Source: Grammothele lineata | Lineage: Eukaryota > Basidiomycota > Agaricomycetes > Polyporales > Polyporaceae | Length of the DNA stretch: 64,000 nucleotides | Assembly: GCA_002150815.3 (NCBI GenBank) | Contig: NDFF03000228.1 | Span: forward strand, 1-64,000 | Direction of reading: 5' to 3' | Part shown: in pieces, positions 6,159 through 37,093 of the stretch | Position numbering within the stretch: position 1 is the first letter of the stretch | How the letters are laid out: every line of letters begins with the position of its first letter | The notes under the pieces: model-generated | Databases searched by the model: none | What the model was told of the DNA's origin: nothing | The model's input: only the letters and a program-made list of their open reading frames with translations | Translations under genes and position numbers: made by a program

Positions 6159-7070
6159 TTACCAGCCACTGACCTCTGAAGCATGGATTGTGGCCCCTGT
6201 TAGCCACCTCAAACTCAGGAAGAGCCAAAAATGAGTAGAAAGACTCACGGCACTGCCGCTCTCCGAGCTCGAAGGGGCCAGCGTGCTGTCCGACAGTGCA
6301 CCGCCCGTCAGAGCATCTATGTCCATTGAGCCCAAGATGATCACGTCTTGCTGTCGCTCTTCGCAGGATCGCCGCGCGTTCAAGCTAGTTCGTGAGCGAA
6401 GAGTATCAACTATCATACACGCGGGTGTGGTTTGGATAGGACGAGGTATACGCACGCCGCCAATAGTGTGATTGCATACACTGTTCAAAAAAGCCAGCGC
6501 GAAGTTGATGTCAGCCAGATCCCATGATTCGCGAAGGACTCGACTCACGCTTTGTGCCAGCAATACTGATTGCGAGGAAGATGAGATTGTCTGGCATGAA
6601 CACAGACTATTTATCAGAGTCAGACATACTCCGTGACATGGTAAGCAGTAATAGTAGCGCAACGTACAACCAGAAACGACGAGATGTTGACAGCCCTGTA
6701 CCAAGATTAATGAGTGGAAATTCCAGAGAGTTTGTGTAGACCGAGTTTTACACAGTAAGTAGTCCTAAGAGCATCATCAACCAACAGATCCAGAGGAATC
6801 CGAATAGATGAGCATACCAGTGTTGACCCCGTAGAGTATGAGGACATTGATGAGTGAGTCGGTCCTATACAGTGTGTACCACACGTTACTCAGATTATGG
6901 TGTCTTCTACTAAGCCCAATCTAATTGCGCATTACCTTTTGAGTCCCGTCCGAGAACGATGGAGGAAGGTCACCAGGGCGACAGTAGTGAGAGTATCAGC
7001 CAGGGCCGCAGCTCCAGTGCATGCGCAGTCTATCCACGTCTGCTGAGGGAATTAACGTCGTCGCACAGAG
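6159..7070 (-). pseudogene. DUF6534 membrane protein gene, 3' exons, severed by transposon
   Basis: Read on the minus strand, the exons show the C-terminal half of an agaricomycete DUF6534 membrane protein. In order they are: a helix ALADTLTTVALVTFLHRSRTG, then RTDSLINVLILYGVNTG (the family signature), MPDNLIFLAISIAG, a short exon VYAITLLA, and LNARRSCEERQQD with an acidic Ser-rich tail. Introns of about 50-75 bp with GT-AG borders separate them. The upstream exons are absent here and resume in the same orientation at 37086-38401 across the 30-kb insertion, so the gene was interrupted rather than deleted. The copy at 58.3-59.1 kb is very similar, introns included. Biochemical role of the family is unknown. 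Confidence 0.75.
7063..7070. repeat. target-site duplication, left copy (GCACAGAG)
   Basis: This 8-bp sequence is repeated exactly at 37086-37093. The uninterrupted paralogue has one diverged copy at this position (reverse complement of about 58303-58311). Eight bases is the duplication length I recall for the Zisupton/KDZ superfamily. Confidence 0.75.
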
Positions 7071-7094
7071 CAGTGTATACCCATAAAATAGCCA

Positions 7095-8930
7095 CAGTTT
7101 CCGTTCAGTCGGATTACCAAAACGACCGCAGTTTCTGTTCAGTCGGGTCCGGTCGGAAAAATATTTTTTGACGTAGTTACAGTCCGGTCGGACTCGTCCG
7201 GATGTCCACAAACCTCGTCCGGTCGGACCGCCCTGCGCAGGACTTCTGCAGAAGGGTCCGAAAAGTCAGTCCGGTCGGACTCGCCGGGATGTCCACAAGT
7301 TTCGTCCGGTCGGACCGCTCTGCGCAGGACCACCGCAGAGGGGTCCGCAAGTCTCGTCCGGTCGGACCGCCCTACGCAAGACTTTCGCAGAGGGGTCCGC
7401 GAGCCTCGTCCGGTCGGATTTCTCGAGGGGTCCGTAAACCTCGTCCGGTCGGACCGCCTTGCGCAGGACTGCCGCAGAGGGGTCCGCAAGCCTCGTCCGG
7501 TCGGATTTGTCGAGGGGTCCGTAAACCTCGTCCGGTCGGACCACCTTGCACAGGACTTCTCCAGAGGGGTCCGCAAGCCTCGTCCGGTCGGATTTGCCGA
7601 GGGGTCCGTAAACCTCGTCCGGTCGGACCGCCTTGCGCAGGACTTCTCCAGAGGGGTCCGCAAGCCTCGTCCGGTCGGACTGCTCTGTGCAGGGCTGCTG
7701 CAGAGGGGTCCGCAAGCCTCGTCCGGTCGGACTTCTCGGGGGGTCCGCAAACCTCGTCCGGTCGGACCGCCCTGCGCAAGACTTCTCCAGAGGGGTCCGC
7801 AAGCCTCGTCCGGTCGGATTTGTCGAGGGGTCCGTAAACCTCGTCCGGTCGGACCACCTTGCACAGGACTTCTCCAGAGGGGTCCGCAAGCCTCGTCCGG
7901 TCGGATTTGCCGAGGGGTCCGTAAACCTCGTCCGGTCGGACCGCCTTGCGCAGGACTTCTCCAGAGGGGTCCGAAAATTCAGTCCGGTCGGACTGCTCTG
8001 TGCAGGGCTGCTGCAGAGGGGTCCGCAAGCCTCGTCCGGTCGGACTTCTCGGGGGGTCCGCAAACCTCGTCCGGTCGGACCGCCTTGCGCAGGACTTCTC
8101 CAGAGGGGTCCGAAAATTCAGTCCGGTCGGACTCGCCGGGATGTCCGCAAGTCTCGTCCGGTCGGACCGCTCTGCGCCGGACTTCTGCAGAGGGGTCCGC
8201 AAGCCTCGTCCGGTCGGACTTCTCGGGGGGTCCGCAAACCTCGTCCGGTCGGACCGCCTTGCGCAGGACTTCTCCAGAGGGGTCCGTAAACCTCGTCCGG
8301 TCGGACTCGCCAGGACGTCCACAAACCTCGTCCGGTCGGACCACCCTGAGGGGTCCGCAAGCCTCGTCCGGTGGGACTCACTGGGGTGTCCACAGGCCTC
8401 GTCCGGTCGGACCGCCCTGCGCAGGGCTTCTGCAGAAGGGTCCGAAAAGTCAGTCCGGTCGGACTCGCCGGGATGTCCGCAAGTCTCGTCCGGTCGGACC
8501 GCTCTGCGCCGGACTTCTGCAGAGGGGTCCGCAAGCCTCGTCCGGTCGGACTTCTCGGGGGGTCCGCAAACCTCGTCCGGTCGGACCGCCTTGCGCAGGA
8601 CTTCTCCAGAGGGGTCCGTAAACCTCGTCCGGTCGGACTCGCCAGGACGTCCACAAACCTCGTCCGGTCGGACCACCCTGAGGGGTCCGCAAGCCTCGTC
8701 CGGTGGGACTCACTGGGGTGTCCACAGGCCTCGTCCGGTCGGACCGCCCTGCGCAGGGCTTCTGCAGAAGGGTCCGAAAAGTCAGTCCGGTCGGACTCGC
8801 CGGGATGTCCGCAAGTCTCGTCCGGTCGGACCGCTCTGCGCCGGACTTCTGCAGAGGGGTCCGCAAGCCTCGTCCGGTTGGACCGCCCTGCCCAAGATTG
8901 CCGCAAAGGGGTCCAATAACCGGAGAGACT
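7095..8930. repeat. left subterminal array of GTCCGGTCGGAC
   Basis: Roughly 40 copies, counted by eye, of the 12-mer GTCCGGTCGGAC (variants GTCCGGTGGGAC, GTCCGGTTGGAC) are spaced about 35-50 bp apart, with fillers such as AGGGGTCCGCAAGCCTC. The 12-mer is palindromic except at its centre and holds two CpGs. Higher-order copies are visible: ACTCGCCGGG recurs at 8131, 8463 and 8795 (period 332), and GCACAGGACTTC recurs at 7548 and 7861 (period 313). Several frames stay open through the array on both strands only because the unit lacks stops; none is called as a gene. The array is probably a transposase-binding or end-recognition region. Confidence 0.9.
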
Positions 8931-9092
8931 GGCGCAACGCGTTGGTTTCCTCTCTTTTGCTATGGAAAGCAGTAGGTGTCTTTTAGATGTATGTGATGTT
9001 CTTCGATGATCCCACCATTAATTCAAACGGCTTGAATGTCAAATTACATTACAGTAGCCATTCTAACATTTCCATGCAATGTAATACGGTAC
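8931..9092. other. spacer between left array and first cargo gene
   Basis: Short unique sequence downstream of the stop of the minus-strand cargo gene. I see nothing specific in it. Confidence 0.3.
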
Positions 9093-11060
9093 CTATGAAC
9101 GCCGCGGTTGATTCTGAAGACCCGTACTCTCAGCTGCTGCAGTAGGTGCTGTTACAGACCCTGCCTCAGAGCTTGCCGCAATGTCAACCAACAGGTTAAC
9201 GTATGTCAACCAATCTTCGGGAATAAATGAAGACCTACTTAATCCCAGACCGTCGGGCGAGACATTGGGGCTGATGATTGGGCTGCTTCCCTAAATATAA
9301 AGCGTATCAATAACGAGTCTGGTAATCGCACCAGCTCTGAGCGGATACTTACCTGCTCCCCGACATTCAGTTCCATCAAGGTGGGAAGGCTGCGGGATGG
9401 GGGTGCAGCAGGTGCGGGTGGCAACAAAGACGCCGAACCCACGATTGTAGGAGGGGAGTGGCTGTAGGAATCCATGCCTAGGGAGCCTGGTGATGAGGAT
9501 ATAACGCCGACAGGGCCTGGCGGTGATGAGGATATAACGCCGACAGGGCCTGGCGGTGACCATTGCTCGCCGTTGGGGCCTTGCTCGGGAGAGGCCAGGC
9601 CGACGAGCCTGGTGGTGAAAGAGGATGCCGACTGGGCCTGGTGGTGAAAATTGAGGCCGATGGGGCCTGGTGGTGAAGAGAGGAGGCCGACGGGGCCTTG
9701 CGGGGAGGAATCGAGGCCGATGGGGCCTGGTGGTGAAGAGAGGAGGCCGACGGGACCTTGCGGGGAGGAATCGAGGCCGACGAGGCCTGGTGGTGAAGAG
9801 AGGAGGCCGACGGGGCCTGGTGGTGAAAAGAGGAGGCCGACGGGGCCTGGTGGTGAAGAGAGGAGGCCAACGGGACCTTGCGGGGAGGAATCGAGGCCGA
9901 TGGGACCTGGTGGTGAAGAGAGGAGGCCGACGGGACCTTGCGGGGAGGAATCGAGGCCGACGAGGCCTGGTGGTGAAGAGAGGAGGCCGACGGGGCCTGG
10001 TGGTGAAAAGAGGAGGCCGACGGGGCCTGGTGGTGAAGAGAGGAGGCCAACGGGACCTTGCGGAGAGGAATCAAGTCCGACGGGCCCCAGTGGAGAAAAC
10101 AGAACGCCGACTGGGCCCGTCGGTGAGGAACCAAGGCCGACGGGACCTTGCGGAGAAGAATCGAGTCCGATGGGCCCCAGTGGAGAAAACAGAATGCCGA
10201 CTGGGCCCGTCGGTGAAAAACCAAGGCTGACGGTGCCTTGCGCACAAGATTGCGCAGGAGACGCAAGACCGACGGGCCCTGATGGAGAAAGGAGAATGCC
10301 GACGGTGCCCGGCGGTGAGGATATGACGCCGACAGGTCCTGGTGGTGAGGAGAAAAGGCTGACGGGGTCTTGTACAGGAGAGGCAAGGCCGACGGGCCCC
10401 AGTGGAGAAAGCAGATCTCCAGATGATACAGCGGGTGATCCTGGATGACCTGCAGACCCAGAATACACGGGTACGGTTTCATGAGCTCCGTCAGAGTCGT
10501 CTGATTCCCTTAGATCCCACACTGATCGGCGGGGACCTTGCGGGCGCGGCGATCCATCGTCGGACGAACTTGGCGGCGTTGTAAAGGTATTCATATGTAC
10601 CAAATCAACCCGATGACGGGGTGGTTCCGGGGGATTTGAAGGAGCAATCGCGGTCGCAGTGCGGCGCCGCAATGCTTCTGCGGCGGCGGTGTCAATTTTA
10701 GTGTCAAAAGGCCGAAATATTTGTACGCTTACCGTACGTCAAGGGCCCCTCAGCAAGTGCGGCCAGACCCCAGAGTGGGTACAGAGGACTCCCGGGTCGC
10801 GGCAATGACGGCTCTAGCGGCTTGCTAGAGTGCGATAACCCTTCCCGGTGGGTGAGGGAGGCACGGTCCGTGGAAAGCGGTAGCCCCTGGTCTTCACTCT
10901 TCATTGTACGCGGAGATGCGGTGTTCTCGCCCCAGGCATGGGGCCCCATAGCCCCATCAACAGTATCTGCGAGAAAAAGTGTTTAGTTATTCATACTTTC
11001 TACAACGGCCGCCAACTTACCTGTATCACTCTGCAAGTTCCCACTGCGTTGTTCCTCCAT
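9093..11060 (-). CDS. cargo protein with Gly-Pro-Val-Gly tandem repeats
   Basis: Four exons on the minus strand close in frame: 11060-11021, 10966-10733, 10677-9353 and 9290-9093, giving about 598 aa. The centre is built of 11-residue repeats such as SSPPGPVGLLF, in variants with VGLDSS or IGLNF. At the DNA level these are 33-bp units, with a block of about 240 bp repeated near 9660-9840 and 9840-10080. The N-terminal 140 residues are Ser/Pro-rich and charged; the C-terminal exon is not repetitive. I recognise no domain. An alternative upstream ATG at 11234 would add 58 residues but would leave only 82 bp to the divergent gene at 11317, so 11060 is preferred. Its place between the terminal array and the other cargo marks it as an element gene. 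It could be structural or DNA-binding; function is unknown. Confidence 0.6.
9600..10150. repeat. 33-bp coding minisatellite inside the repeat protein gene
   Basis: Tandem units resemble GGGCCTGGTGGTGAAGAG followed by AGGAGGCCGAC. They are in register with codons (33 bp gives 11 residues), so the array is a protein repeat. Long-range copies of identical multi-unit blocks show recent expansion. Confidence 0.8.
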
Positions 11061-11316
11061 CCTTGTCCGGCTTTCCGTGGTGGTGAAATGCCGGAGGACA
11101 TCAGACGCCGGCTGTTGTTTGCACGGGTTGTGCAAGCAAAGGCGCCTTTGGAGCGGGCCGCGTGGCCCCGGCGCTGCGAGCGATAGCCGATTTCGAGAAG
11201 TCCGCTCCGCTGCGGCAACCTTCGACTCGACCATCTCTTCTACCGTCGCCGCACCCGCTGCTCTACTCTTCCTCTACACCGTCGGTTTTCTCTCTTGCTC
11301 TCTTTTCGCTACTGCT
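11061..11316. promoter_or_regulatory. divergent promoter between two cargo genes
   Basis: About 256 bp separate the preferred starts of the minus gene (11060) and the plus gene (11317). A C/T-rich run at 11226-11300 precedes the plus-strand ATG. The spacing suggests shared control of the two cargo genes. Confidence 0.35.
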
Positions 11317-14300
11317 ATGGATCACTCCCCTCGTGCTGCCGCTGCCGTTTCTCTGCCTCAAGAGGCCCGCGAAGCGTTGGAGCAACGCGCCGCTGAAGTG
11401 CATTATGCCGCCCAGCACCTCCCGCCAGCCAACGCTCCCCCACAGCTCCGCTCAAGTTATCAGGAACGTTTCCGAGAAAGTATTCGGGCCATCGCGATCA
11501 TCCTCGTCCAATACGGGAAGGCCGTCAAGGAGCTGCCTGAGGTCGCGCTTGGCGGCATCTATGAATACAATCGCTCGAAGACCCCCCCGTCGCTCCCGCC
11601 ATTCGACGTCTATTCCGTGCAGGCAGTCCAGGGCTCAGCCGCCCCTGATCGATATGCGGGTCACCGGATAGGGATTACCGGGAACAACGAGGGCCACATT
11701 CCGCTCCTTGCGGAGGCCGCGGTGTTGGACAAATGGTGGCTGCGTCCGAGTGAGTCACTCTCTTCTCCACCCTTCCTCAGAAGGTCATCGGTTCCCAGAA
11801 TATGTCCTCCCAGAACCTCCGCATTCAGATCACGGTGTTCCAAGGAGCACACCGGGTGCCTCCTCGTCGACCGGTAAGCTTTGATCTCAGGTGTGCAGAA
11901 ACCGTAATCAACGCCCAACCCTCACATCCGCATTCAGCTCCTTTGCTAGATACTGCGGCGCAGAGCACGGTGGGGCAAACGTCTGGCGGTGAGTGTTTAC
12001 TTTACAGATTCGGCTTGCGATGCTCAGAGTGCTGCTGGAGCAGGGCCGATCACCGCCCGCAAACCATCCCGAACGACCGCCCGACCTGCGAGCAAAGGCG
12101 GTCTTCCTCCGGAAGGTACGTTATTGGCTACTTATGTCTGCTGCTCCCTAACGACTGCGTTCTCTGTGCCGGATACCGATGCTCATATTCAGCGGCAGCA
12201 GGGCCGCGCCGAGGGCGGTCAGCTATGGAGGGTGCGTACTGCCCATGATTTTTTCACATTCCGCGCTGAACGTTGTCTGAATTAGCCTCCAATGCCCGCT
12301 CTGCAGCTCCTGCCATGCCGCAAACCACCCCTAAGACGCCGCCCGCTGCAGAGGGCCGACGAACCCATCAGCGTGCGTTCGTCGAGCTCCCTTTGCGAGT
12401 GCGTTCAAAGGAGGCCCAAAAAGCAGATCTTCCAGTCCGCGGAGGAGACAAAACCGGCCCAGCTGCGGCCGTCGCTCATCGACGAAGGGCAGCTAGCACG
12501 GCGGGGCAGCCAGAGACCGCCAGTGCTCCGTCGGCGTCCACGTCGCGCCAAAAGGAAAAGCGCGTCACAATCGAAGCACCCGGGGACCACGGACGTCGGG
12601 GACGCAAAAGTGATGCTCAGCCCCCAAGGAAAAAATATAAGACCTCAACCGGCAAGGCCGCACGGGCTCCCCGTCCGTATATTCCTCCGGAGCCCGGATT
12701 TCCCCCCGAAGCCGTCATCAAGCTGGGCTATTACCTTCACCGCAAGGTGAGTACATACGCAACCCTTGGGTCTCCGATGACGTTGACCGTATGCCCTCAG
12801 GATCATGCGTGCGCGCAATGCCGGGCCAAGGGCCTGGATTGCGCTGTTTTCCCCCTTTGGGGCACGACGTGCGCAGCATGCCGGTTCTCGAAAGGCGGGT
12901 GTTCGTTCACCGAAATGTCCTTCAAGACCCACGTCAGGGAGCTCGCGTCGTACCTAGCCTGTCGAGGATTCCGACAGATGGTCAACCCCGACATCTACCC
13001 CAACCCGGTCTTTGTCTCCACGAAGTGGATATCGCAAGACGTCCACGCCGTCCCGACCTGGTTCATCGAGCACCTCAAAGCGGAGAACCCCGAGAAGAAG
13101 AAACCCTTCGAGATCAACATCAACAAGTTGAACAAGTTGCCGTTCTACCCTCGCCTCCCTCTCCGGTCCCCGGTGATCTCCTTTGACGGTGAGGAGGACT
13201 TGGGGTTCCCCCAAACTGAGGTGAGTCTCTCCTTTGCGAAAACCTACATGCCGGACTTACACGAGCTTCAGCTTCATCCGCCGAAGACGAAGTCCAGCGG
13301 CAAGGCCAAGAAAGGCAAAAACACCGAACCCGGTACGTTGACTCCGTTATGGACGCTGGTCGGGTTGAAGGCTCGAGGATCGAAGAAGGGCAAGCGGCCC
13401 GGCGTTTGGTTCAGCATCGGCGCTGATTCCAGCTCCGTAGAATCCGCACCGGCGAACTCTGAGCCGGAAGCAGAAGCTAGCCCCAGCAGTAGACAAGTGG
13501 CGTCGCAGAAGAGAGCCGTTCGGCGCGAGAAGGAGAAGATCGGGTCCGATTCCCACCCGAAGAAGGCACCCGCATCCGACTCGGAGGGCGAAGGGGAAGA
13601 GGAGAAGCTGCGCAGTGACGAGGATAGCGACAACGAGGACAACGAAGGCAACGACGCGGTCCAGGAAGCCCGCCCTCAAAAGCGTCGACGCCAGGACGAG
13701 GACGGCGAGGACGACGAAGACCATGAGGAGGACGAGGAGGACGAGGATGACGAGGAGGATGGCGAAAACGACGAGGACGGCGAGGAGGAAGATGAATATG
13801 CACCTCCACCGCCCCTAGAGGACGCCGACGACAACGACGATGATAACGACATCACGCAGACGGGAGGCCAAGATGCAGCGGGCGAGGAGGAAAACGACTA
13901 TGGCGGCGACGGCGACGATGAATACGAGCCCGCAAGAGCCCCAGAAGACGACGGTGTGGAAGTCGATGTCGCCGGGGCGGGCTCAGAGGCTGCAGTCGAC
14001 GGGGTGCCAGACCTCGGGCACGATGACCCCTCTGCGGTGAGTGGGTTTCCCACTTCTGTCCCAATCCCCTCTCACCTCACACTTTATAGCCGAGCGGGGG
14101 CAGGGATGATTCCGCACCCTCGTCTAGCAGCCCGGAGCCCGACGCTGCAGAACGTTCTGCACGCAGGAAGCTCAAGGGCAAGGCGCGAGCAACAAGCCCA
14201 TCCGAGGACGAACGCTATTCCATCGAGAAGCTCGTCCAAGCCCGGGGCAAATCGACCGCCTCTCCAGCTTTGGAGGGTGAGGACGACGAGGCCGAGACAC

Positions 14301-16140
14301 CTGCCCAGAACACCGCCCTTCCTCCGGATTGGAGGCAAAAACGCGCTCCTCGTCCCCCTGGTAAGTCTAGCTTTCTAATACGGCCATCCCTCCTCCTTAT
14401 TGATCAGGCCGCTCTTGGCGAAACCTCCCCCATCTAGCCCAGCCCCCGATCGACTTCATTGCTCGTACCCGAGAGGCCACGTACGGCCGATTCAGTCACA
14501 GGGACGGCCCGGCTTTGCCGCCTCCTTCCGCTTCGAACATTTTCGGCATCACCGACACCCATCCTTCGAGCGACGGTCGGCCGGTGCAAATGCCACCTGC
14601 CCCCCGTGCCGGGAAAGTGGGTGAGCGGTTGCACGCCTTGCGACACCGCCTGCAGGAGCAGCTTTCCAAAGCTCCGCCCTCCGCCAACGCAGACGAATCA
14701 GCGCAACGCGAACATGTCCGGAATGCACTGCGTGACCTCGAAGATGCCACCCTTGACACGCTCAGCATCCTCTCGCAGGTGTCTGACCGGCAGGATGAAA
14801 GCGAGGCGTTCATCGCCACCCTCACGACCTTCAAACAGGCCGTCGGTCCCTCCCTCGAGCGTTTGGACCATGCCGTCGACAAACTCAAAACGAACTGCTG
14901 GAAGCTCAACCAGGACTTCCGCGAGACGGATCAGACCGTCGAAGCGCAGTACCACCACACGAGGGCATTGGATGACACCATGGCCCGGCTTTCCGCGGCG
15001 GCGGCTTCGAAGAGTGCGGCGTTGGACACCGACATTATGGAGCTACGCCGGGAGTTGCGGGGTTCCATCGGCGACGCCACAGATTCCTGGCGGGACATCA
15101 TCGAGAAAATGGGCATCGCCCTTTCGCAGACAGCCGATGTCTCAGAAGAAGACCGCGCCGCTGCCCTTGCAGACCTCGACGCCGCCAACAGCACTCTCGC
15201 AGAAGGTGTTCGCGCTTGGCAGCGGGCAAACGTCGCGTTCTCGCGGGATTCACAGAACCTTCAGCGCCTGACGACCGAAGTCGGCAGCCTCCAGCTACGT
15301 ATGGAGACCGCTGAGGAGTCTCTCCGGTCTCTCCGTGAAGACCGCGCACGACCGGACGCCGCGGCGGTGAACCTCGGGGATGACGCGGCGCCTGCTGCTC
15401 GTCGTGAAGCCGCCAGTTTGGCCCCGCTCGAGATTCCGTATCTCACAGTCCCACTCACTACACTCACCGGCGCCGCAGCCTCTCTTCCTCCCACCACCAA
15501 TCCGACACCGGCCGGCTCACCGTCGGCGCACGTTTACGTGTTCCCGCCTTCGGCCTCACCTATCGCCGCACATTCAGATGCGATCGCCGACCTCACAAAA
15601 CGCGTTCGCGACTTGGAGGCTACCCTTCATAGTGCCCCAGGTTCCCCGGCCCATCCCTCGCCGAAGGCGCCCGATGACCATGTTACAGAGCTGAGGGGCA
15701 AGATCTTCGCCTTAGAAGAGGAGTTACGGGAGCGGGATGCCGAGGTCACACGGCTGCGGGAGGAGGCGCAAGAGCATGACCGAATGATGGAGCGCCTCCG
15801 CAATGAGCTACAGCAGCTTCGCGTTGGGGGCCAGGCGAGTCCTTCGTCGCCAGCGATCGATCCTCCGCCGAAATCATCTGCCGCACCCTCAGCCTCGCCA
15901 GGTCCAGTTGAGAGCAGCCCCGTCCAAGAGCCGGCCGCGCCCTTTCCAACGTCTCCAACATCCCCCGCCGCGGAGGAGGGCCTTGCAAATAGGCCCGGTG
16001 ACGCAGACGTGGAAATGGAGGATCCTGCGTGCGCCTCTCCGCCGGCCTCTCCCGCCGGAGATAAGGCAGGTGAACATGGTAGCCAGTCGGAATCCGAAGA
16101 CGGCGAGATTCGGGAAGACGTTGCAATGGGCACAGTCTGA
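11317..16140 (+). CDS. large cargo protein: cysteine cluster, acidic region, coiled coil
   Basis: The start is taken as the ATG at 11317 (MDHSPRAAAAV). Exons join in frame to one stop at 16140, giving roughly 1,400 residues. A helical N-terminal domain (about 150 aa) is followed by a basic, Pro-rich stretch. Next comes a cysteine cluster after the intron ending near 12800: CAQC, a Cys six residues on, then CAAC and a last Cys seven residues on. This spacing recalls a fungal binuclear-type zinc cluster or the CxC motifs of KDZ-linked proteins. A long Asp/Glu-rich region (about 13550-14030) follows, then a coiled coil of about 540 aa (14515-16140) with heptad-like segments such as LRGKIFALEEELRERDAEV. 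Exon joins between 11.75 and 12.3 kb are ambiguous: the obvious introns there are too short (31 and 19 bp), and more than one frame is open. DNA binding through the cluster and self-association through the coil are inferences. Confidence 0.65.
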
Positions 16141-16404
16141 AAGCCGGCGTTTGGACGTACCTACATAGCATGCACCGTTTTTGTATTATTACCTGTACAG
16201 TAGTAACTCTAGCGATATGTTACTTCCGCTCTCCTTCAGCCTGCGTCTATGTGAATTCATGCCTTGGTGGCGGAATTTTCAGCAGCCTGTGTCGTGAGTA
16301 AGAGGAAGCCGTGACCAAGCCTGCGGCCTCATGTCAGACGCGCGGCGCAGCGAGTCTTGATCGCGATCTTGCCCGGCAACGCGACTTCGCTGCCTACCGC
16401 CAAT
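16141..16404. promoter_or_regulatory. short spacer upstream of the TET/JBP gene
   Basis: 264 bp lie between two same-strand cargo genes. I see no clear motif. Confidence 0.25.
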
Positions 16405-17731: not shown

Positions 17732-17744
17732 GCCCGCGGGGCGG

Positions 17745-18003
17745 TTTGTCAAAGAATCGGTTCCTGCAATAGTAGACAGGATGCCTATGCAATTACGGAA
17801 ACTGTATACAAGCCTTCCTTTCTCGCTTCGCTCTGCTGGGTGTGGTAGGCTTTGCCGGAGGCTTCTTTGCGGGCACTGCAGGGGTTTAAGCATCCGCTGC
17901 ATCCTCCTCCGGCTGCATCTCCTGACTGCGCTTGTGGACGCGCTTTCCGGTTTTAGGAGGTTCAACCTTCCAAACGAGGCGGATTGCGGTCTTGAGGCCA
18001 GGT
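17745..18003 (-). repeat. decayed duplicate of the 3' end of the neighbouring charged-protein gene
   Basis: On the minus strand this stretch aligns with 18055-18290. Shared tracts include TAGACAGGATG..ATGC near 17773 and 18062, GGCTTCTT.GC..G..CTGCAGGGG near 17860 and 18146, and TCCTCCGGCTGC.TCTCC near 17904 and 18195. It contains frame-breaking differences and lies past the stop of the active gene, so it is a relic of a tandem duplication of the last exons. Confidence 0.65.
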
Positions 18004-25803: not shown

Positions 25804-25894
25804 ATGGTATATCGTGATGGGCTTAAGGCATCGATGGAAGGACGCCCCGTGCGCTTGCTTATGAACCGCCACTGCCATCAGGCTGAAACACAAC

Positions 25895-26472
25895 ATGGAT
25901 GTTCGAAGTCTACAAACTATACGCAAAGCACAGACGGCAGCGTCCTGCAATTTAGAGGTAGAGTTGGTGCTGTGGCGCATCGGCGAAGCGCTGCGAGCAT
26001 TTCCAGACAACGCCGATGAGAAGACGACGTCACGGTGGCAAACCGGAATTGCCCGTGAGCTGGTAAGATAATCCTTCAAGTTAGTCTAAATCTACTAACG
26101 CCAGAATAGTGGGTCATTGTGAATGCTGTCGGGGTTTGCAGTGCGGTCAACGCGGTGGCGGATCCGGCAATCACCCCTACCACCACGCCCTTAGAGAATG
26201 AACAACTCAAGATGCTGTTGGCTGCTGTAGAGTGGAGGGGTCGCACCATTCATTTACGCCTGCACAATCTCAACATCGCTCAATATCTCTCTATCGGCGA
26301 AGTGGATGGGGCGCGCTTCGGGCCTTTAAAGGATCGTGAAGGGTTTCCGAAATGGTGGACTTGGGCGGAGTTCTATCCAGAATTGACCAACACACCCGCT
26401 TGGTGGCAGAATCCCAATGATAGGGTGGTAGGTGCTCAAAGCTTGAACAGAAAGGGCTGGCAATTTATATGA
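25895..26472 (+). CDS. short unassigned gene behind the transposase
   Basis: A frame from the ATG at 25895 reads MDVRSLQTIRKAQT and continues to a GT donor near 26063. After an acceptor near 26108 it goes on as WVIVNAVGVCSAV and then VEWRGRTIHLRLHNLNIAQ, ending at 26472. Composition looks coding. It could be a small separate gene or the true C-terminal exons of the transposase, reached by an intron starting near 25782. I recognise no domain. Confidence 0.4.
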
Positions 26473-26659
26473 CTGTTAGATGCAACCGATGCCGGCTTTT
26501 GCCGGAGATGGGGGTTACGGCGAAGGCTTCTGAACGCTTCGGGGTCGTGTTTACCGGGTGGCAGTGCTCACGAAGCGCGTAGTACTACTCGATGTAATCT
26601 TAGCGCGTGAAGTACGCGCTGGCAAAGGGGCTGGGGTGCTGAAAAATATGTATCGCTGA

Positions 26660-28450: not shown

Positions 28451-28495
28451 CGGTAACTACGACTATTTAGGTAGTCCGTCTGAACGGTATTACAG

Positions 28496-28513
28496 CATCA
28501 GGGAAAACCCGAG
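28496..28513 (+). repeat. Plavaka left terminal inverted repeat
   Basis: The 18-bp end CATCAGGGAAAACCCGAG matches the right end in inverse orientation at 17 of 18 positions. Confidence 0.8.
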
Positions 28514-28720
28514 GTCCTAAGCCCCATTAATTAGTGCTAATGAGCAGACTTAGATGATTTCTCTAATAAGCTAGGTTCCGATCTAATGAGTGGGCTTAGC
28601 CGTCGCCGTAATGATTAGGACACGATTAGATGGCCATTATATCGGGCCATTAGATGGTCATTATATGTGTTCATTAGCATTCAATTAGTTCATGTTATGC
28701 AGTCATTAGTGTATAGATTC
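28514..28720. repeat. subterminal ATTAG/CTAAT repeats of the Plavaka element
   Basis: Short words ATTAG, CATTAG and CTAATGA recur many times in both directions here. A few more lie by the right end (near 36977 and 37034). Clustered short subterminal motifs of this kind are typical transposase-binding sites in CACTA-like elements. Confidence 0.55.
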
Positions 28721-29102
28721 GGGCACGCGGTACTACGCTGTTTCATCGCAAATGGCAATGGTGAATTCGCTGCATGTCAAGAGTACTACATGACCCTAAA
28801 GTACTGGGCACTACAGACGCTACAAGCACCAGGTGAAATGACCGCATGCGAAGGGGAAACAAATACGCAGACTCGGAGCTGGCTGCTCCGCGCGGGGATG
28901 TAAACGAGTGTGGAGGTGGACTGCATGTCACACAAATAGAATAGAATGAGCGACGGAACGAGCACCGGGACAGGATTATGCCTGTGCGCGGTCGACTCGG
29001 GTCGGAAAAGGGGATGTAGTCGAAAAAGGGGGTGATGGGCGTTGGGATGGTCGGTTGGTGAGCGCACGAAAGCGGAACGTTGCCAGAGACGGATACAAGG
29101 GC

Positions 29103-32100
29103 CTAATCGACGTCCATGTTGTCAATGTCGATGTGGTCGAGTGCTGTCGTGGGTTTGGCCCCAGCCGTCGCACCCGCCGAAACGTTACCACTGCGAAAAG
29201 ATGAGTACGTTGCACGTGTACTACATGGGGACGGGATCACGTACCTTGCAGTCTGGTAGAGGTCGTGCATGAGCTTGTGGTACGCACGCAACTTCTTCGT
29301 CTGAATGTTGGTGAGGATGAGGAGGTGCTCGTTGTAGGCATCAGAAAAGTTGTTCGCCGAAAAATCGATCGTCTTGCCACTGAATGCAAGCCGCCTGTTC
29401 ATGAGAGCGGCATGAATCTGGGACGCATATGAAGTCGTCAGACAAGGGAAGTAATTTCGGCGTATAAAGAAATAAAATACCGCCGTCGCTGTCAGCGCTA
29501 GCATGTGCATCGGGATCTCAGGTTCGTTCGGGCGATCGGCTACGCTGGAGGTAAATATGGCGGTTTGGGTGAGCCCGATGTCCGTCGAACTACTGAAGAA
29601 AGCTTGTTGGAGGGTGGCCGCGACGGCGGGATGCTGGTAAGGCTTCGTCCACGTTACCGAGTTGGTCGAGTTGTCCTGATATGTAATTTTAAGTTCCGTA
29701 GACGTGCGAATCATGTAGTAGGTCAAAAACGAAACACTGGGTACGACGTACCGTGTACTTGTAGGGGAATATGTACCGCGTTTCTTCTAAAAGCCAGGTG
29801 ATCTTGTGGGCATAGTTCTCGTTCGTTATGTCGTAGAGCACCGGGGCCGTGCTGGCGCAGGTCTTGACCTCGCCCCTGAAAGTGCTGAAACGTTGATGGA
29901 CCTTCAAGGCAACGGAGGTGAGGCACGACTCCGTAGGCAGGGAAGGGGTGAACACGGTATCTAACTTACTAGAGTGCTGATGGGATGAGCAAACTTCGAG
30001 TCGCTATCGAGACGTTCATGTAGCCCCGTATAACCGCATGCAAGAGCGGTTTCTTTGAGGGCGTTTTTGACGAGGACAGTGCGTGTGGCAAGGTCGGGCC
30101 AAGCGTGCTCGCAAACCATGTGGCGCTCCATCTTGAGAATTGTGCGGCGCGTGATGTCGACGATGTGGGGGTGTTGCCCAATGAGCTGAACAGGGCCGCC
30201 GTTCCCGTTGTTGAAGACGATACTGTACGCCTGTGGCGGCAAAGCGAGAGGGGGGGGAGCAGCAGGGGCGGGGGCAGGAATAGCAAGAGCAGTGGGGGCA
30301 GCAGCAGGAATTAGCGCACCCGTAGGACCGTGAGCATCCTCCCCCTCGTCCCCATCCTCACGCTCAGACCCGAAGCCATGGGCCTCTTCCTCCATCTGGA
30401 CGTCCTCGGCCACCGCATAGGGGGTCTGCGCTGGGTCGTTGCTGGTACTTGCAGCGGATTGGCTATGGCGGGGCGTGCGCAGTGCGTGCGGCGTTAGCTG
30501 ATAACGAAGCTCCTCGCTAGCTGCACGGTCAGACGCGGAGTCCTCGTCGCCGGCCGCTTGTCTCCAAGTGGGAACCTAAGAAAAAGTGTCGCATTGGTGA
30601 GCACTAGCTTATGGTAGGGGCTGCGCAGAAACTCGTACCTCAATCTGCTGTTTGGCTTGTTGAGCAGGCGTTGCCTGTGCATAGCATGCAGCGCGCGTGA
30701 GGTTGGAGAATAGAGTTCAGACTCAGCTCTAACTTAATCTCACCTTCGTGGGACGGAGTCCGTGCGCGGCGCTCCCTGGTACGACTGAAGGGACACGTAC
30801 GCTATCCTCTCCACCATCGGAGTCCTCAAGAAAGTCGACAACCTGTTATACATCATCAATTGACGCTCTTCTTCAACCTCTCGGTACGCGGCAGTGGCAC
30901 TGAGAGATGACAGACACATGGAACTCACGCTCAGGCTTCGAGCAGGAACGGTCGCCTTTCCTTTGCCCTTTGAGACTGCCTTCAACCCTGATGGAACCTC
31001 TGACGTGGCTTGGTTCCAAACGGGCTGCTAGAGTAACGGAATAATCAAAGTAAGTTTACCTCAGCCTGTAATGTCGAGCATCGCTCACCTCAGATTGTAG
31101 CTGGGCAGCCAGAAGATCGTCTGCGACATCGTCCAGGCCATCTTCCTCGCTCTCCTCCTCCTCCTCCAGGCCAGGTTTATACGAGTCGTCGGATGAGGCC
31201 GCGGACTCGAGCTGTTCGTCCTGGGCATCCGAGTCGAGCTCGGCCATCTCGGTTGCTGCCGGGTCCCTTGATATTGTAGCTGCCGCCACGGTACGTGCAC
31301 TACTCTTCCTAGTGGCAGTACTCGTTCCTAGAGCTAATGATACCGTGGTGTCCGACATCTATTACGACCTCGTATACTAGACGTTCAAAACAAGAACGTG
31401 CCTTTAGTGGAGGTGCGCGGGCGGCTATTCGTGGCGAGCGGCTCATCGTCCTCCGACGACGCTTGCTCAGAGTCCGTTGGGGGTAGATCTATGATCTGAT
31501 ACATGGGCCGTGGCGCCGGCGGGCCCCCTGGAAGAGATGCATGTCAGTGAATCCGGGTTTCGCTTAAAGCGACTCAGCGCAAAAGTTAAGAAACTTACCC
31601 GGGCCTTGCTTAGATCTGGCACTGCGCGCGGTCGCCTTTGCGGAAGCCGGCGGCTGTACAACGCTAGCCGATGCCGTAAAAGGAGCGCCTTCACGGTGCG
31701 GAATCTGCTGGGCTGTGCTGCTGCTGAACGAGCTTGAGACCGAGCCACCAGCAGCCGTCTGAACAAGACCTGCTTCGGTGAGACACTTGACCGATGCTGT
31801 ATAGGTTTCGATGATTATTGTGAGTGCATAGACACGGCATGGCATTAGAAACATTGACTTACCAGAGAGTTTAGAACTGCCGCCAGACTCGGACGCCCTC
31901 GCCTTTTTCGCTCGAGGAGTGGTGGCAGTCGCGAGCTCAGAGTTGGTCGAAACGGCGGTGGCAGCATTCACTCCAGCTGTAGCCTGAAGTTGTGCTGGAG
32001 ATGTCGTCGACTGGGCACGGGTACGCTTGCGCTGCTTGTTCTCCGTGGACCAGACTGAACGAGTTCTTAGTACTGTACCCTCTTGAGTCGCCAGTGAAGA

Positions 32101-32533
32101 TCAAACCCTTACCTCGGTTTTTCAACGCATCAACCTTTGCCTGTCGAATAGGACGAGAGTCGTGTTCGTGTCCGGCCTCAGGCTGGGTTGTCATGGCTGG
32201 CACAGAGCACGTGAGTAGTGAATACGTACTTGTCGATAGTATACCGATGGGATATTGACTTGTGCGGTTTGACAACAGGTACTCACATTGGCTGACGTAC
32301 TTCGGCGGCCTGGGTTGCCCCAACTTTGATTCAACTTGAAGGTCCTTGGCGTGTGTAAGAGCACCAGGCCCCGGCGAAACACCCTCGGGGGGAGGATTGG
32401 TACGGCGACCAGCACCGCTACGACGAGTAGAAGGCCGCTGATTACCATGTGCAGGTTGGGACAGCGGGGCTGCCTCCGCAGACAATGTGTCTGCCTGAGG
32501 AGCTGGAGCACTGCGACGAGATGCCTTGGACAT
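29103..32533 (-). CDS. DUF6532-family protein carried by the Plavaka element
   Basis: The start is the ATG at 32533 (MSKASRRSAPAPQ), 308 bp from the divergent transposase start. The N-terminal half is spread over many short exons and is low complexity (Pro/Ser, basic, then acidic). The C-terminal half holds the DUF6532 core: MVCEHAWPDLATRTVLVKNA, then a block with KITWLLEETRYIFPYKY, then YQHPAVAATLQQAFFS, PMHMLALTATAVFYFFIRRN and FSDAYNEHLLILTNIQ. The last join (donor near 29245, acceptor near 29195) leads to SGNVSAGATAGAK and an acidic end at 29103. The family is abundant in Agaricomycetes and has no assigned function. Its position inside the terminal repeats, paired with the transposase, argues that it is a transposon gene. 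Upstream exon borders (30.4-32.3 kb) were not all fixed. Confidence 0.65.
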
Positions 32534-32841
32534 GGTAATGCGGGATAGAAAGGGCACAGGAGATAATTAGCGAAGTTGAGGTGGGTAGGAAGCGTCGGGT
32601 CAACCGACGTATGAGGAGCGAAGTGCGATGATAAGGTAAGCAAGACGGGTGGTTGCCTTATCCACGGACGCTGACGAGCAGCGGCTGGTACTGTATAGTT
32701 CAGGAGGCTGAGCACGTGTTGTGGCGTCCGCTCTCTAAGGCCGTCTTCAGGCGGCACCGCATTCCGTTCAAGCCACCACTGTTTCTTATCAGTTCAATAG
32801 TATCAGTGTTCTTCTCCGTTCTCCTTCGTTCTCCGCTAGAC
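32534..32841. promoter_or_regulatory. divergent promoter of the Plavaka gene pair
   Basis: 308 bp separate the two start codons. C/T-rich text (32800-32835) precedes the transposase ATG. It probably drives both element genes. Confidence 0.4.
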
Positions 32842-35800
32842 ATGCCGCAATCTCATCAGTGCCCCGGGTGCAAGCGAGACGACTTTACAGCCTCAGGACT
32901 CTCTCACCACCTCACGCAGACGAAGAATCCTGTATGCCAGAATGCCTGGAAGCAACTTCAAGAGTCGGCGAGCGCATCTCTCACCCAACCCCTCCCTTCC
33001 GCCGATTCGGAGATGTTCGATGTCGATTTGGAGGCTGAGCCGGCTCCCTTCTCAGGCGACTACTTTGGTGACTATAACGACGACTTCTTCGACGATGAGC
33101 CCCCCCCAGAGGGCACGCCCCCGCCCGACGACGTTAGCAGTACCAGTTCAGACTCAGACGACGACACCTTCAACGCTCAAGCATCATGGGAACCTCCCCC
33201 ACGGCCTCTTCCAGCGGCGCCCTCTACCTCAGCTTCAGGTGCTGCTTCGGTGGGTGTCGACAACCCAGCACCCCCTGGCCCCCCACTTCCCTCTTCGGAT
33301 GCACGTAAAAGTGCTGATGAAGGCACACGACGTAAGACTTTCATTGTGAAGTTCCCCACCCCCACGGCTGCTGCCCCTCTTCCCCGAGCTCCCCATTCAA
33401 AAACCACCAACGAGCAATACGCCAGCAAGCTTGCGGACGCCTCCGATGACAATCCCTACGCCCCGTTCACGTCCAGAATTGATTGGGAGGTTGCAAAGTG
33501 GGCGAAGCTCCGTGGGTCTGGATCGACTGCGTTCACCGACTTACTCGCCATTGAAGGGGTAAGTACACGCCTTGCTCGGAGTCCAGGCTCTTCGAACTCA
33601 CACTAACATGTAACGACGCCGTCACCCTCTATTAGGTGGCAAAACAGCTCGAACTCTCGTACAACAACTCTCGAGAGCTGAACAACATTGTCGATAAGAA
33701 ACTCCCATCAGCACGCCCACGATTTCAGCGTCACGAGATCGTTGTTGCCGGTGAATCCTTCGACGTCTTCTTCCGCGACATCATTGAATGCATACGAGCT
33801 CTCTTCGGCGACCCTGAATTTGCACCCATCCTCCTCCTCGTCCCGGAACGACACTACACCGACGACACACAGACCGTCCGAGTCTATTTCGATATGAATA
33901 CAGGCAAGTGGTGGTGGGCCACTCAGGTGCGTTCAACGTTGCGTCATGCTGCATGCTCGACACTCCACTCAGATGCTTGTATATCTTGCAGGAAGTTCTC
34001 GAGTCACAGAAGCCAGGAGCGACAGTAATACCTATCATCATCGCCTCCGACAAAACTCAGCTCACGCTCATCGGGAATAAGACCGCCTACCCCGTTTACA
34101 TGACCATCGGCAATCTCCCCAAAGACATTCGCTCGAAACCCTCGCGCGGTGGCCAGATCCTGCTTGCCTACCTTCCGACCTCACGTCTCCTCCATATCTC
34201 CAACAAAGCAGCGCGCCGACGCACGCTCGCCAACCTCTTTCACGCGTGCATGACACGCGTTCTCCAACCGCTCGTTTCGGCTGGTACGGACGGCATCACC
34301 CTCACGAGTGGAGACGGCATTATGCGTCGAGGCCATCCTATTGTCGCTGTGTTCGTCGGCGACTATCCCGAGCAAGTCCTCGCGACGGGCTGCAAGACAG
34401 GCGAGTGCCCCAAGTGCGAAGTTCCCCGTGATGAAGTCGGCGACAACACAGACCCCTCTCGCCCCTTTCGCCAGTTAGACGACATACTCAGCGCTCTCGC
34501 AGCCATAGACGAGGGGCCGAGAGCATTTTCGGAGGCGTGCAAAAGTGTCGGCATTAAGCCGATCTTCCATCCGTTCTGGGAGTCCCTTCCATACACCAAC
34601 ATCTTCTACGCCATCACGCCCGATATTCTCCATCAGCTCTACCAAGGGGTTGTGAAACACCTTGTCGCATGGCTTCAGGAAGCCTACGGTACCGAAGAGA
34701 TAGACGCACGGTGCCGCCGCCTCCCCCCAAATCATAGCCTCCGGCACTTCAGCAAGGGCATCTCCAGCATGTCGCGTGTCACGGGTAAGGAGCACCAGGA
34801 CATCGCACGCATCCTCCTCGGACTCATCATCGGCCTTCCTCTTCCTGGTGGTCTATCTCCTATTCGCCTCGTTCGTGCTGTTCGTGCCATGCTCGACTTT
34901 CTTTACCTCGCTCAATATTCCACGCACACCACTTCGACCCTTCGGCTCCTCAAGGACGCTCTCAAGTCATTCCATGAGAACAAGGCAATCTTCGTCGACC
35001 TCGGCATTCGAGATCACTTCCATCTTCCGAAGCTCCACTCGCTCGACCATTATGCGCGATCGATTGAGCTTTTCGGCACGACGGACAACTACGACACACA
35101 GTACTCTGAGCGCCTTCACATCGACCTCACCAAGGACGCATATCGTGCCACCAACAAGAAGGACGAGTTGACGCAGATGACGGTATGGCTAGAACGCAAG
35201 GAGAAGATCCTACGGCATGAGAAGTATGTCAAATGGCGTCTCGAAAAGGCGGGCCATGCGGCCGCTTCACGCTCGGAGAACATGTCTCTCGTACCTTCGA
35301 CGTCCAACGCTCGACGACCAGGTGCGTGGTTAATTCATACCTTCACATTCTGTCACGCCCTCTGACGCTCAGCTGATTTGCAGGTCGCCCACGCCTGAAC
35401 GTTGCGGAGCCTCTCCCACGAGTGCAGATGACACGCCATCCCTCTGTCGCTAACGTAGACCTCAACGACATTATTACTCTGTACGGCGCGACGTATTTCC
35501 GCGACGCGCTCTCCCGTTTTGTGGTCTCCGTTACACATCCTCAGCTTACTCCTGCTCAGCGTGAACACGCTTCCTCTGGCGTCTATCTCACATTCAAGAA
35601 GATCCCCGTTTTCCATCGCATCAAGCTCCGCATTTCCGACGTGCAGGGCCAGGGTTTGTACATGACGGCGGACACCGTAGATACAGTCCATGTTCAGCCT
35701 GAGCGGAAGAACAAACGCGGAGACGACGTTCCTGCAAGATTTGACACAGTTCTAGTGCGCGAGAGCAGTGCGGATCGACCACGTCGTGTACAAGGTACGA

Positions 35801-36215
35801 TTTATTTGCATGGCTCATCTCGGTCCTATTCTCGAGACTCATACTGCTATCAGAGCTGCAAGTTGCTCAAGTACGCGTTGTGTTCCAAATTCCACGTAAC
35901 GCTATACCCGTCCTCTTCCCTGGCCTCCCAACACCGTCCATACCTAGCCATCTTGCGTACGTAGAGTGGTTCACACCGTTCTCAGCCGTTCCATACCCAG
36001 ATCATGGGTTGTACAAGGTTTCGCGTTCACGTCGAGGCGAGGCACGGCTTGCTAGCATAATTCCTGTAGATCATATCGAGAGGAGCTGTCATCTCTATCC
36101 CGACTTCGGCCCTGTTGCGCCGCGCGACTGGACTAGTAGCACCGTACTTGACCAGTGTCCGTCTTTCTTTGTCAACCCATTCGTAGATCGTCATATGTAC
36201 ATGCTTGTATATTAG
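32842..36215 (+). CDS. Plavaka transposase, complete
   Basis: Five exons (32842-33558, 33636-33926, 33992-35321, 35384-35794 and 35854-36215) close exactly in frame, giving 1,036 aa. The N-terminus has a C2H2-like finger (CPGCKRDDFTASGLSHHL). An acidic, Pro-rich linker of about 200 residues follows, then the Plavaka core: FQRHEIVVAGESFDVFFRD, PILLLVPERHYTDD, VIPIIIASDKTQLTLIGNK, YPVYMTIGNLPKDIRSKPS, AVFVGDYPEQVLATG with a zinc-knuckle-like CKTGECPKC, TPDILHQLYQGVVKHLV, and the helical part ending LHSLDHYARSIELFGTTDNYDTQYSERLH. D in ASDKTQL and D in TPDILHQ are likely catalytic acidic residues (inference). The C-terminal block ends CPSFFVNPFVDRHMYMLVY, the usual family ending. No frame damage is seen. 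Confidence 0.9.
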
Positions 36216-37043
36216 ACTCGGACCTTATGCCGGATCCGCCGGATCCCGGGCCCTATGACTTAATCCGAATGGGCAATAAGCTTGTGTGTGTGAAAATACA
36301 AATTGTGAAGGAGATACAACTGGGGGCATGTTGTCCTTGATTTGATAAAGCTGTTGGAGCTTAGAGTGAGAAGCCTGGAGAATAACGCGGCAATCGAAGG
36401 AAACAACTTGGCTGCATCCGCCTCTCCAGTGAGCGGGCGCTTGTAGCTTAGCCTAAGCGCACGGCTGCGGTCTCGACCGCTGAAGGTGGGGGATTAATTA
36501 GCAAGCTCAGACATGATATGGAAAGAGAAGCCAAGCTTATTACCTAGTATTTGAGGGTAAAATTCTTTGTGGCAGAGCAGATTTGAGGCCATCTTAGGGG
36601 AAACAAACCTGTGTCTATATACCTCGTGTGTGCGCGCAACTCCGAGTGCATCGGCCCTCGCCAAACCCTAATCCAAGGTTTCGTGAACGCGCTGCCGGCG
36701 TACCTCTCTTAGTCATTTCACAGTTCGCTCCCCTGGTGCTGGCATCTCTCAGAAGAAGAGGTAAATGTCCCTGCATACAACCCAATGTCGGTTTCGAGTC
36801 CGAATTCGATACTACAACGTCCGTGACTCGACTCGGAAGGCACCGCTTCAAACTCGCACTCGGACCGGACACAAAAACGAGTGCAAATATTACCTGTAGG
36901 GGTGCACAAAGTACGTGCTCTATTCGTACACTTCGCAGTCGAGTTGTGACTCCCCTTAGTACTTCATAAGTTCCCATTAGCAGCATAAGATAGATCTGAG
37001 CGCGTTAGTAGGGGCTTAGGGCTAAATTCGGCCTAATTAGAGA
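36216..37043. other. 3' subterminal region of the Plavaka element
   Basis: No gene is seen. A degenerate tRNA-like patch lies near 36434-36500 (TAGCTTAGC and a GCGGTCTCGACCGC stem), but its T-arm is not intact. Confidence 0.35.
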
Positions 37044-37061
37044 CTCGGGTTTTTCCTGATG
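37044..37061 (-). repeat. Plavaka right terminal inverted repeat
   Basis: The inverse of the left end with one mismatch (position 8, G to A), followed by AG, which also precedes the left end. Confidence 0.8.
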
Positions 37062-37085
37062 AGGGGTATGATATGGCCATTGAGT

Positions 37086-37093
37086 GCACAGAG
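37086..37093. repeat. target-site duplication, right copy (GCACAGAG)
   Basis: Exact copy of 7063-7070. It marks the right border of the compound insertion. Confidence 0.75.

What the first reader, a model, noticed from the sequence alone, without database searches (positions are those of the whole stretch)
7063..37093. Exact borders of a 30-kb insertion that cuts a DUF6534 gene in two
GCACAGAG occurs at 7063-7070 and at 37086-37093. Outside these points lie the 3' and 5' halves of one minus-strand DUF6534 gene. The paralogue at 58.0-59.1 kb runs through the same junction with one diverged copy of the 8-mer (about 58303-58311), flanked by sequence matching both halves. This is an internal empty-site proof of insertion, with an 8-bp duplication as expected for Zisupton/KDZ.
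Basis: seen in the sequence. Interest (0 to 1): 0.9.

Follow-up and report, generated by a model that had tools for sequence, protein, structure and literature searches.

The report
Jumping gene nested inside another
A 21-kb fungal jumping gene that carries its own DNA-demethylase-like enzyme landed in a membrane-protein gene and was itself hit near its tip by a second, unrelated 8.6-kb jumping gene; both kinds are already known.

Summary
The insertion is real and its borders are right, but it is two elements. (1) A 21.4-kb KDZ-type DNA transposon, 7071-28495 plus 37064-37086, begins CAGTG and ends GAGT(G). It carries an apparently intact KDZ transposase (1,016 residues, my splice model), a CcTET-like TET/JBP dioxygenase, several uncharacterised genes and polarised subterminal arrays of TCCGGTCGG (38 forward on the left, 17 reverse on the right). 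(2) An 8,566-bp PlavakaB-type transposon, 28496-37061 (CATCAGG...CCTGATG, 2-bp duplication AG), sits 23 bp inside the right end. A second KDZ copy in the same genome lacks it and shows the joined sequence.

The host site is a DUF6534 gene; the paralogue at 58.0-59.1 kb crosses the junction. The duplication GCACAGAG is best read as 8 bp: three insertions in this genome each show exactly 8 bp beside CAGTG, though the right end then varies (GAGT, GAGTG, GAGTGG). Fixing the right end at GAGTG makes the window's copy 7 bp, the published Kyakuja value.

The two copies are mosaic relative to each other: synonymous divergence falls from about 1.0 to 0.04 within about 3 kb. The TET exon is under strong purifying selection (dN/dS 0.08).

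It is a new member of a known kind, unusually well delimited.

The parts
7063..7070 (+). Left copy of the target site duplication GCACAGAG (7-bp reading: CACAGAG, 7064-7070)
37086..37093 (+). Right copy of the duplication GCACAGAG (7-bp reading: 37087-37093, base 37086 then being the last base of the element)
7071..28495 (+). KDZ-type transposon, main part; left terminus CAGTGTATACCC
   Evidence: copy in C194 starts to match at base 7071; right part matches C199 at 97% up to base 28495
37064..37086 (+). KDZ-type transposon, last 23 bp (GGGTATGATATGGCCATTGAGTG), cut off from the rest by the nested element
   Evidence: contiguous with the rest in C199:1339-1369
28496..37061 (+). Nested PlavakaB-type transposon; termini CATCAGG...CCTGATG, 17 of the first 18 bases repeated in inverted order, 2-bp duplication AG at 28494-28495 and 37062-37063
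   Evidence: absent from C199; coordinates; termini
7092..8914 (+). Left subterminal array; motif TCCGGTCGG 38 times on +, 0 on - (counted over 7071-8914)
26641..28487 (-). Right subterminal array; same motif 17 times on -, 0 on + (counted over 26641-28495)
9242..10738 (-). Repetitive open frame (GPVGLxSSP units) of unknown meaning; region also present in C194
   Evidence: no Pfam family
11317..16137 (+). Uncharacterised gene or genes in several exons (open frames 12270-14375 and 14404-16137); dN/dS against C194 0.25-0.73 by segment
   Evidence: no homologue found for 14404-16137
16590..17728 (+). TET/JBP dioxygenase; Tet_JBP domain in exon 17156-17728, HxD at 17396-17404, second His at 17549
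18089..21725 (-). Uncharacterised minus-strand gene or genes (open frames 18092-19027, 19066-20751, 20755-21351, 20922-21725)
   Evidence: no homologue found for 19066-20751
22266..25803 (+). KDZ transposase, hand-made model of 8 exons, 1,016 residues, no stop in the model; CxC1, CxC2 and KDZ domains
33818..35965 (+). Plavaka transposase (PF18759 in frame 33818-35365; DUF6830 below its cut-off in frame 35377-35964)
29103..30575 (-). Minus-strand gene in the nested element, DUF6532 domain in frame 29103-29786
6247..7062 (-). 3' half of the interrupted DUF6534 gene
37094..37387 (-). 5' neighbouring part of the interrupted DUF6534 gene (the gene probably continues to about 38.4 kb; not shown)
58002..59117 (+). 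Paralogue that crosses the junction without an insertion

Best explanation
A TET-carrying KDZ transposon, most likely of the Kyakuja lineage, inserted into a DUF6534 gene and made an 8-bp target duplication (7 bp if its right end is fixed at TG). It would move by a cut-and-paste reaction of its own KDZ transposase acting on the loosely matching ends and, I infer, on the inward-facing TCCGGTCGG arrays as binding sites. Its TET/JBP enzyme would oxidise 5-methylcytosine on the element and so keep it from being silenced; the arrays carry two CpGs per motif and would be natural targets. Later, I infer, a PlavakaB-type transposon inserted 23 bp from the right terminus, separating the tip from the array, which probably immobilises the older element. 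Shown: borders, nesting, both duplications, gene content, array polarity, purifying selection on the TET exon, mosaicism between two copies. Inferred: Kyakuja class, binding-site role, demethylation role, order of events, loss of mobility.
For: Borders and paralogue. Left end seen again in C194 (92%, from base 7071) and, from base 7072, in C219 (84%). Right end seen again in C199 with the nested element absent (TATTACAG|GGGTATG). Transposase model of 8 exons without a stop; the three stops that one search counts in the unspliced stretch lie in one intron of the model. CxC1, CxC2 and KDZ domains. 49 homologues among the 7,997 candidates scored, the best ones from Ganoderma, Polyporus and Earliella; 4 of the 49, three of them from Ganoderma boninense, have a Tet_JBP domain in the same predicted protein: (order Polyporales looked up for two of these species). 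TET matches CcTET in the PDB (E 3e-13). Its HRDPSGVQGMYD has the Gly and Asp that PMC12730594 describes after the HxD of AG-type enzymes. Array polarity 38/0 and 0/17. Plavaka domain E 1e-86. PlavakaB termini CATCA..TGATG with 2- or 3-bp duplications are published in PMC12730594. Three insertions with exactly 8 shared bases next to CAGTG (GCACAGAG, ATGGGATT, AGACGACC). TET exon dN/dS 0.08 (0.05-0.13).
Against: Published Kyakuja duplications are 7 bp with CA..TG ends, not 8. With an 8-bp duplication the last base of the element varies between copies (GAGT, GAGTG, GAGTGG), which needs an imprecise right end. The second copy is on two contigs, so its pairing rests on the shared 8-mer and on both contigs ending inside the element. 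For C230 I found the left end by looking for the bases next to the presumed right end, so that case is partly selected. A further related left end (C219) gave no convincing right end; in C239 and C152 only right-hand stretches were fetched and no end was recognised. The upstream TET segment of C194 holds one stop in the alignment, so that copy's TET may be damaged there (or the stop is in an intron). Kyakuja versus Zisupton was not tested with a tree. No data on methylation, expression or movement.
Confidence: 0.88

Rival explanations
1. One 30-kb KDZ element that carries a Plavaka transposase as cargo and moves as a unit.
For: The outer duplication encloses the whole 30 kb.
Against: The nested part has its own termini and 2-bp duplication, and the second copy lacks it cleanly. 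The subterminal arrays stop before it: 0 motifs in 28496-37061.
Confidence: 0.05
2. The duplication is 7 bp (CACAGAG) and the eighth base is the element's own last G, as published for Kyakuja.
For: PMC12730594 gives 7 bp and CA..TG ends for Kyakuja-1_LB and -2_LB. In the window a fixed end GAGTG gives 7 bp.
Against: With the same fixed end C194/C199 gives 8 bp and C230 gives no match at that offset. With the left end as anchor the three insertions give exactly 8, 64 times likelier under 8 than under 7 if the right end may vary. KDZ1 of Cryptococcus gives 8 bp, KDZ2 and KDZ3 4-8 bp, in fresh insertions (PMC12810828, passages).
Confidence: 0.25
3. The two DUF6534 pieces are remnants of two different paralogues brought together by rearrangement, not one gene split by an insertion.
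For: The genome search with 37094-38600 listed only itself and missed even the paralogue seen, so the comparison set is thin.
Against: Both pieces are collinear with one paralogue, do not overlap, and diverge from it about equally (73% and 74%). The duplication sits flush with ends defined by other copies.
Confidence: 0.03
4. The mosaic pattern between the two copies is an assembly artefact: reads of two elements were joined wrongly.
For: C194 ends in a 690-bp stretch that differs from the window at one base, where a short-read assembly would break or join wrongly.
Against: Identity rises gradually from 70% to 98% over about 700 bp (18064-18783) with many differences inside one contig. dS falls stepwise 1.04, 0.26, 0.04.
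Confidence: 0.15

Closest known systems
TET+ Kyakuja transposons of Agaricomycetes (KDZ superfamily; PMC12730594)
   Same: KDZ transposase beside an AG-type TET/JBP gene; CA at the left and TG near the right end; no long terminal inverted repeat; the only TET+ group that the paper reports from Polyporales, where the nearest transposases here come from
   Different: 8-bp rather than 7-bp duplication on the best reading, variable last base, long polarised subterminal arrays, several extra genes, 21.4 kb. The paper's figures and supplements were not seen, so these features may occur there too.
Zisupton / TET+ Zisupton (KDZ)
   Same: 8-bp duplication; AG-type TET in some
   Different: TET+ Zisupton of Agaricomycotina is reported from Auriculariales and Agaricales. 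No tree was made here.
PlavakaB (CACTA/EnSpm-Mirage-Chapaev-Transib group)
   Same: Plavaka transposase, CATCA..TGATG termini, 2-bp duplication
   Different: No TET domain was found in the nested element, either in the six frames scanned or by the genome search with Tet_JBP; it carries a DUF6532 gene
KDZ1-KDZ3 of Cryptococcus neoformans (PMC12810828, passages seen)
   Same: Active KDZ elements, CxC1 plus KDZ transposase, 8-bp or 4-8-bp duplications
   Different: 9-11 kb with terminal inverted repeats of 139-241 bp; the passages seen mention no TET gene and report almost no methylation on the copies

Membership tests
KDZ superfamily | KDZ transposase domain with CxC zinc cluster | tested here: met
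   PF18758 E 1e-42, PF18803 E 7e-23, PF18802 E 4e-8 on the first 575 residues of the spliced protein
KDZ superfamily | Target duplication of about 7-8 bp at defined ends | tested here: met
   GCACAGAG; also ATGGGATT and AGACGACC at two related insertions
Kyakuja lineage | 7-bp duplication | tested here: inconclusive
   7 bp in the window only if the right end is fixed at GAGTG; then 8 bp in C194/C199 and no match at that offset in C230
Kyakuja lineage | CA..TG termini without terminal inverted repeat | tested here: met
   CAGTG...GAGTG; ends only loosely alike. On the 8-bp reading the window's own copy ends GAGT, not TG.
Kyakuja lineage | Position of the transposase in a KDZ tree | not tested
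   No labelled reference sequences were at hand; the nearest relatives are Polyporales proteins
Zisupton lineage | 8-bp duplication | tested here: inconclusive
   8 bp on the best reading, 7 bp in the window if the right end is fixed; published value
TET+ transposons, AG type | TET/JBP gene inside the element with HxD and the Gly and Asp that follow it | tested here: met
   Tet_JBP E 8e-14; CcTET hit; HRDPSGVQGMYD against the description in PMC12730594
PlavakaB | Plavaka transposase | tested here: met
   PF18759 E 1.3e-86
PlavakaB | CATCA..TGATG termini and 2- or 3-bp duplication | tested here: met
   CATCAGG..CCTGATG with AG on both sides, unoccupied site in C199
DUF6534 gene at the target | PF20152 domain | tested here: met
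   E 5e-12 on hand-spliced exons of the 3' half; no match with the raw frames 6159-6764 and 38063-38569

The most novel reading that the evidence does not exclude
These TET-carrying KDZ elements evolve by module exchange, swapping whole halves between lineages that differ by about one synonymous change per site, while the TET gene stays under strong selection; and the TET enzyme's job is local, keeping the CpG-bearing, polarised subterminal arrays free of methylation so that the transposase can bind. The right-end cut would be imprecise by up to two bases while the 8-bp stagger stays constant.
Probability: 0.2. Interest if true: 0.7.

Novelty: new member of a known kind. Interest (0 to 1): 0.42.

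Why it matters
It is an exactly bounded TET-carrying KDZ element in which host site, duplication, ends, gene content and a later nested insertion can all be read. The paired array and TET gene in one element make a clear test of what transposon-borne TET enzymes are for, a question that PMC12730594 calls not experimentally validated. The nested case also warns that a matching pair of outer duplications does not show that everything between them is one element.

Tried and rejected
Tried and rejected: a single 30-kb element (C199 shows the junction without the Plavaka part); rearranged paralogues (collinear, about equal divergence); a plain 8-mer coincidence (ends defined independently). Led nowhere: the right end of the C219 copy (no match preceded by a recognisable end); ends of C239 and C152, of which only right-hand stretches were fetched; homologues of the frames 14404-16137 and 19066-20751 (none at E <= 0.001 among the 7,994 and 7,984 candidates scored); Pfam on the cargo frames scanned, where 14404-16140 gave five coiled-coil-like matches, all below their cut-offs, and the others none. 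CpG depletion as a sign of methylation: observed/expected is 1.08 in the left array and 0.89 in the right array against 1.03 and 1.15 in the flanks, so no strong signal. An early note took 7 bp as settled; the third insertion made me change that.

Numbers to read with care: the row for 19066-20400 was read in a wrong frame and is replaced; the same call counts one stop in C194 in the segment upstream of the TET domain. One search listed only its own place although one search shows the paralogue, so that search is not exhaustive. One search gave C230 as the longest other match to the transposase region (66-69%), besides C194's last 94 bases (100%) and short pieces in C217 and C239 (69-73%). One search had a fourth match, the reverse-oriented right end of C199 (82%).
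Full report
What was checked. The finding claims an exact 30-kb insertion with an 8-bp duplication in a DUF6534 gene, proved by a paralogue in the same window. GCACAGAG is at both stated places. Within the window, 6247-7065 matches 59117-58309 and 37120-37387 matches 58275-58002, both in reverse, at 74% and 73%, and an alignment of the joined flanks to 57990-59130 runs through the junction with a single diverged 8-mer. The 3' half carries the DUF6534 domain when its exons are spliced by hand; the raw frames 6159-6764 and 38063-38569 gave no Pfam match. The match of the paralogue begins only at 58002, so it does not cover the whole gene.

What the insertion is. The window belongs to a 41.8-Mb assembly of 252 contigs, fungal by its gene content. 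Searching that genome with the left border gave, besides itself, two other left ends, C194 at 92% matching from base 7071 and C219 at 84% from base 7072, and one reverse-oriented right end, C199. Searching with 28300-28760 found C199 again, 97% identical up to exactly base 28495. C199 then continues directly with GGGTATGATATGGCCATTGAGTG, which in the window lies at 37064-37086. The stretch 28496-37061 is therefore a second element sitting inside the first. It begins CATCAGGG and ends CCTGATG, 17 of its first 18 bases are repeated in inverted order, it is flanked by AG on both sides, and it encodes a Plavaka transposase. Those ends and a 2- or 3-bp duplication are what PMC12730594 reports for PlavakaB (section 3.2 read).

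The outer element is 21,448 bp. My transposase model reads through eight exons without a stop, 1,016 residues; the three stops counted in the unspliced stretch lie in one intron. Its first 575 residues hold CxC1, CxC2 and KDZ domains. I take the acidic residues in VVLDGNF, IYDVVCQY and GETLEPLW as the likely catalytic ones (recalled motif; positions). The best relatives come from Ganoderma, Polyporus and Earliella (order Polyporales looked up for two of these species), and 4 of 49 homologues, three from Ganoderma boninense and one from Suillus, hold a Tet_JBP domain in the same predicted protein. A TET/JBP gene lies upstream in the same direction; it matches the solved enzyme CcTET and has the HxD, Gly and Asp that PMC12730594 describes for the AG type. 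The other frames scanned in the outer element have no Pfam family above its cut-off, and the two searched further gave no homologue. At both ends lie arrays of TCCGGTCGG, pointing inward: 38 forward and 0 reverse on the left, 0 forward and 17 reverse on the right, 0 in the nested element and in both flanks, and 1 reverse in the interior at 17322; the other copy shows 11 and 0 on its left (C194:9435-9925) and 0 and 9 on its right (C199:1-1369). I read them as transposase-binding arrays; this is inference.

Seven or eight bases. Three insertions can be read. Window: GCACAGAG. C194 (left end) with C199 (right end): ATGGGATT. C230, a related TET-carrying element: AGACGACC. Counting from the left end CAGTG, the shared run is exactly 8 in 3 of 3; under a true length of 7 this is 64 times less likely than under 8, provided the right end may vary. 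The right end then reads GAGT, GAGTG and GAGTGG. If instead the right end is fixed at GAGTG, the lengths are 7, 8 and, in C230, no match at that offset. PMC12730594 gives 7 bp for Kyakuja and 8 bp for Zisupton and for the Dileera element Zisupton-1_PGr. PMC12810828 reports 8 bp for one KDZ element of Cryptococcus and 4-8 bp for two others in fresh insertions (passages seen). I favour 8 bp. C230's left end was found by searching for the bases beside its right end, so it is not a fully independent case. C219 gave no pair of ends; for C239 and C152 I fetched only right-hand stretches and recognised no end.

Two copies, two histories. The window and C194 are 66-75% identical in the aligned pieces between 9.2 and 18.0 kb, yet 94-98% in 250-base bins from 18.5 to 19.75 kb, with one difference in the last 690 bases before C194 ends. 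Synonymous divergence is 1.04 (0.75-1.59) in the TET exon, 0.26 (0.19-0.34) in the next frame and 0.04 (0.02-0.07) in the one after. Selection on proteins does not readily produce that; recombination or gene conversion between diverged elements can. Which of the two is the recombinant is not known. The TET exon has dN/dS 0.08 (0.05-0.13), the lowest of the segments measured. Against an intact second copy: the C194 segment upstream of the TET domain holds one stop.

How it works, and what is known. KDZ elements with a TET gene, and the suggestion that the enzyme counters silencing, are in print (PMC12730594: outline, passages, sections 3.2 and 3.4 and the first of two parts of section 4 read). 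That paper says the function is not experimentally validated. The nested PlavakaB insertion separates the last 23 bp from the array, which should hinder further movement; order and effect are inferred. The full-text search for Kyakuja listed 12 papers, of which I opened PMC12730594, PMC8290104 (passages) and PMC12810828 (passages). A search on KDZ, subterminal repeat, transposase and Basidiomycota listed 3 papers with at least three of these terms, each with 0 occurrences of 'subterminal repeat'. The original description by Iyer and colleagues (recalled) was not held, and figures and supplements were not seen, so I do not claim that the arrays are new.

Verdict. A real, well-delimited insertion, composite rather than single, of known kinds. 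The genome holds many relatives: 71 matches to the KDZ domain, exons counted apart, 65 of them over the cut-off, and 17 to Tet_JBP, 10 of them over the cut-off. What deserves follow-up is the mosaic, the constant 8-base run with a variable right end, and the pairing of CpG-bearing arrays with a TET gene.

Noticed in passing
39478-39562 and 53346-53430: An 85-bp stretch repeated at 100% identity in inverted orientation; each copy holds a tRNA-Glu gene (anticodon CTC).
   Followed up: yes
4561-4725: An imperfect inverted repeat and 32-bp tandem units in the left flank; 4617-4963 also matches C219 at 76%, perhaps a small non-autonomous element.
   Followed up: no
9242-10738: Long repetitive frame of GPVGLxSSP units in 30/60/90/180-bp periods, kept in the second copy at 66-73% DNA identity; which strand is coding, if any, is unclear.
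   Followed up: partly
57709-58020: Just upstream of the DUF6534 paralogue's matching part an open frame resembles the start of an FAD/NAD-binding reductase (recalled resemblance); Pfam finds nothing at E 0.01.
   Followed up: partly
17735-17967 and 18023-18254: A 74% duplicated segment just after the TET gene, apparently present once in C194, lying where the mosaic breakpoint begins.
   Followed up: partly
L057 and L058 (C230:105001-109800, 122001-130000): A related TET-carrying KDZ element of about 20.7 kb with a different right-end repeat unit (GCCCGAGTGGCCCCCCACCAGC-like, read by eye), so the array sequence may be family-specific.
   Followed up: partly
L059 (C239:26001-31000): By eye, a KDZ transposase tail separated from a small downstream gene by about 3 kb of other sequence, possibly another nested insertion.
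   Followed up: no
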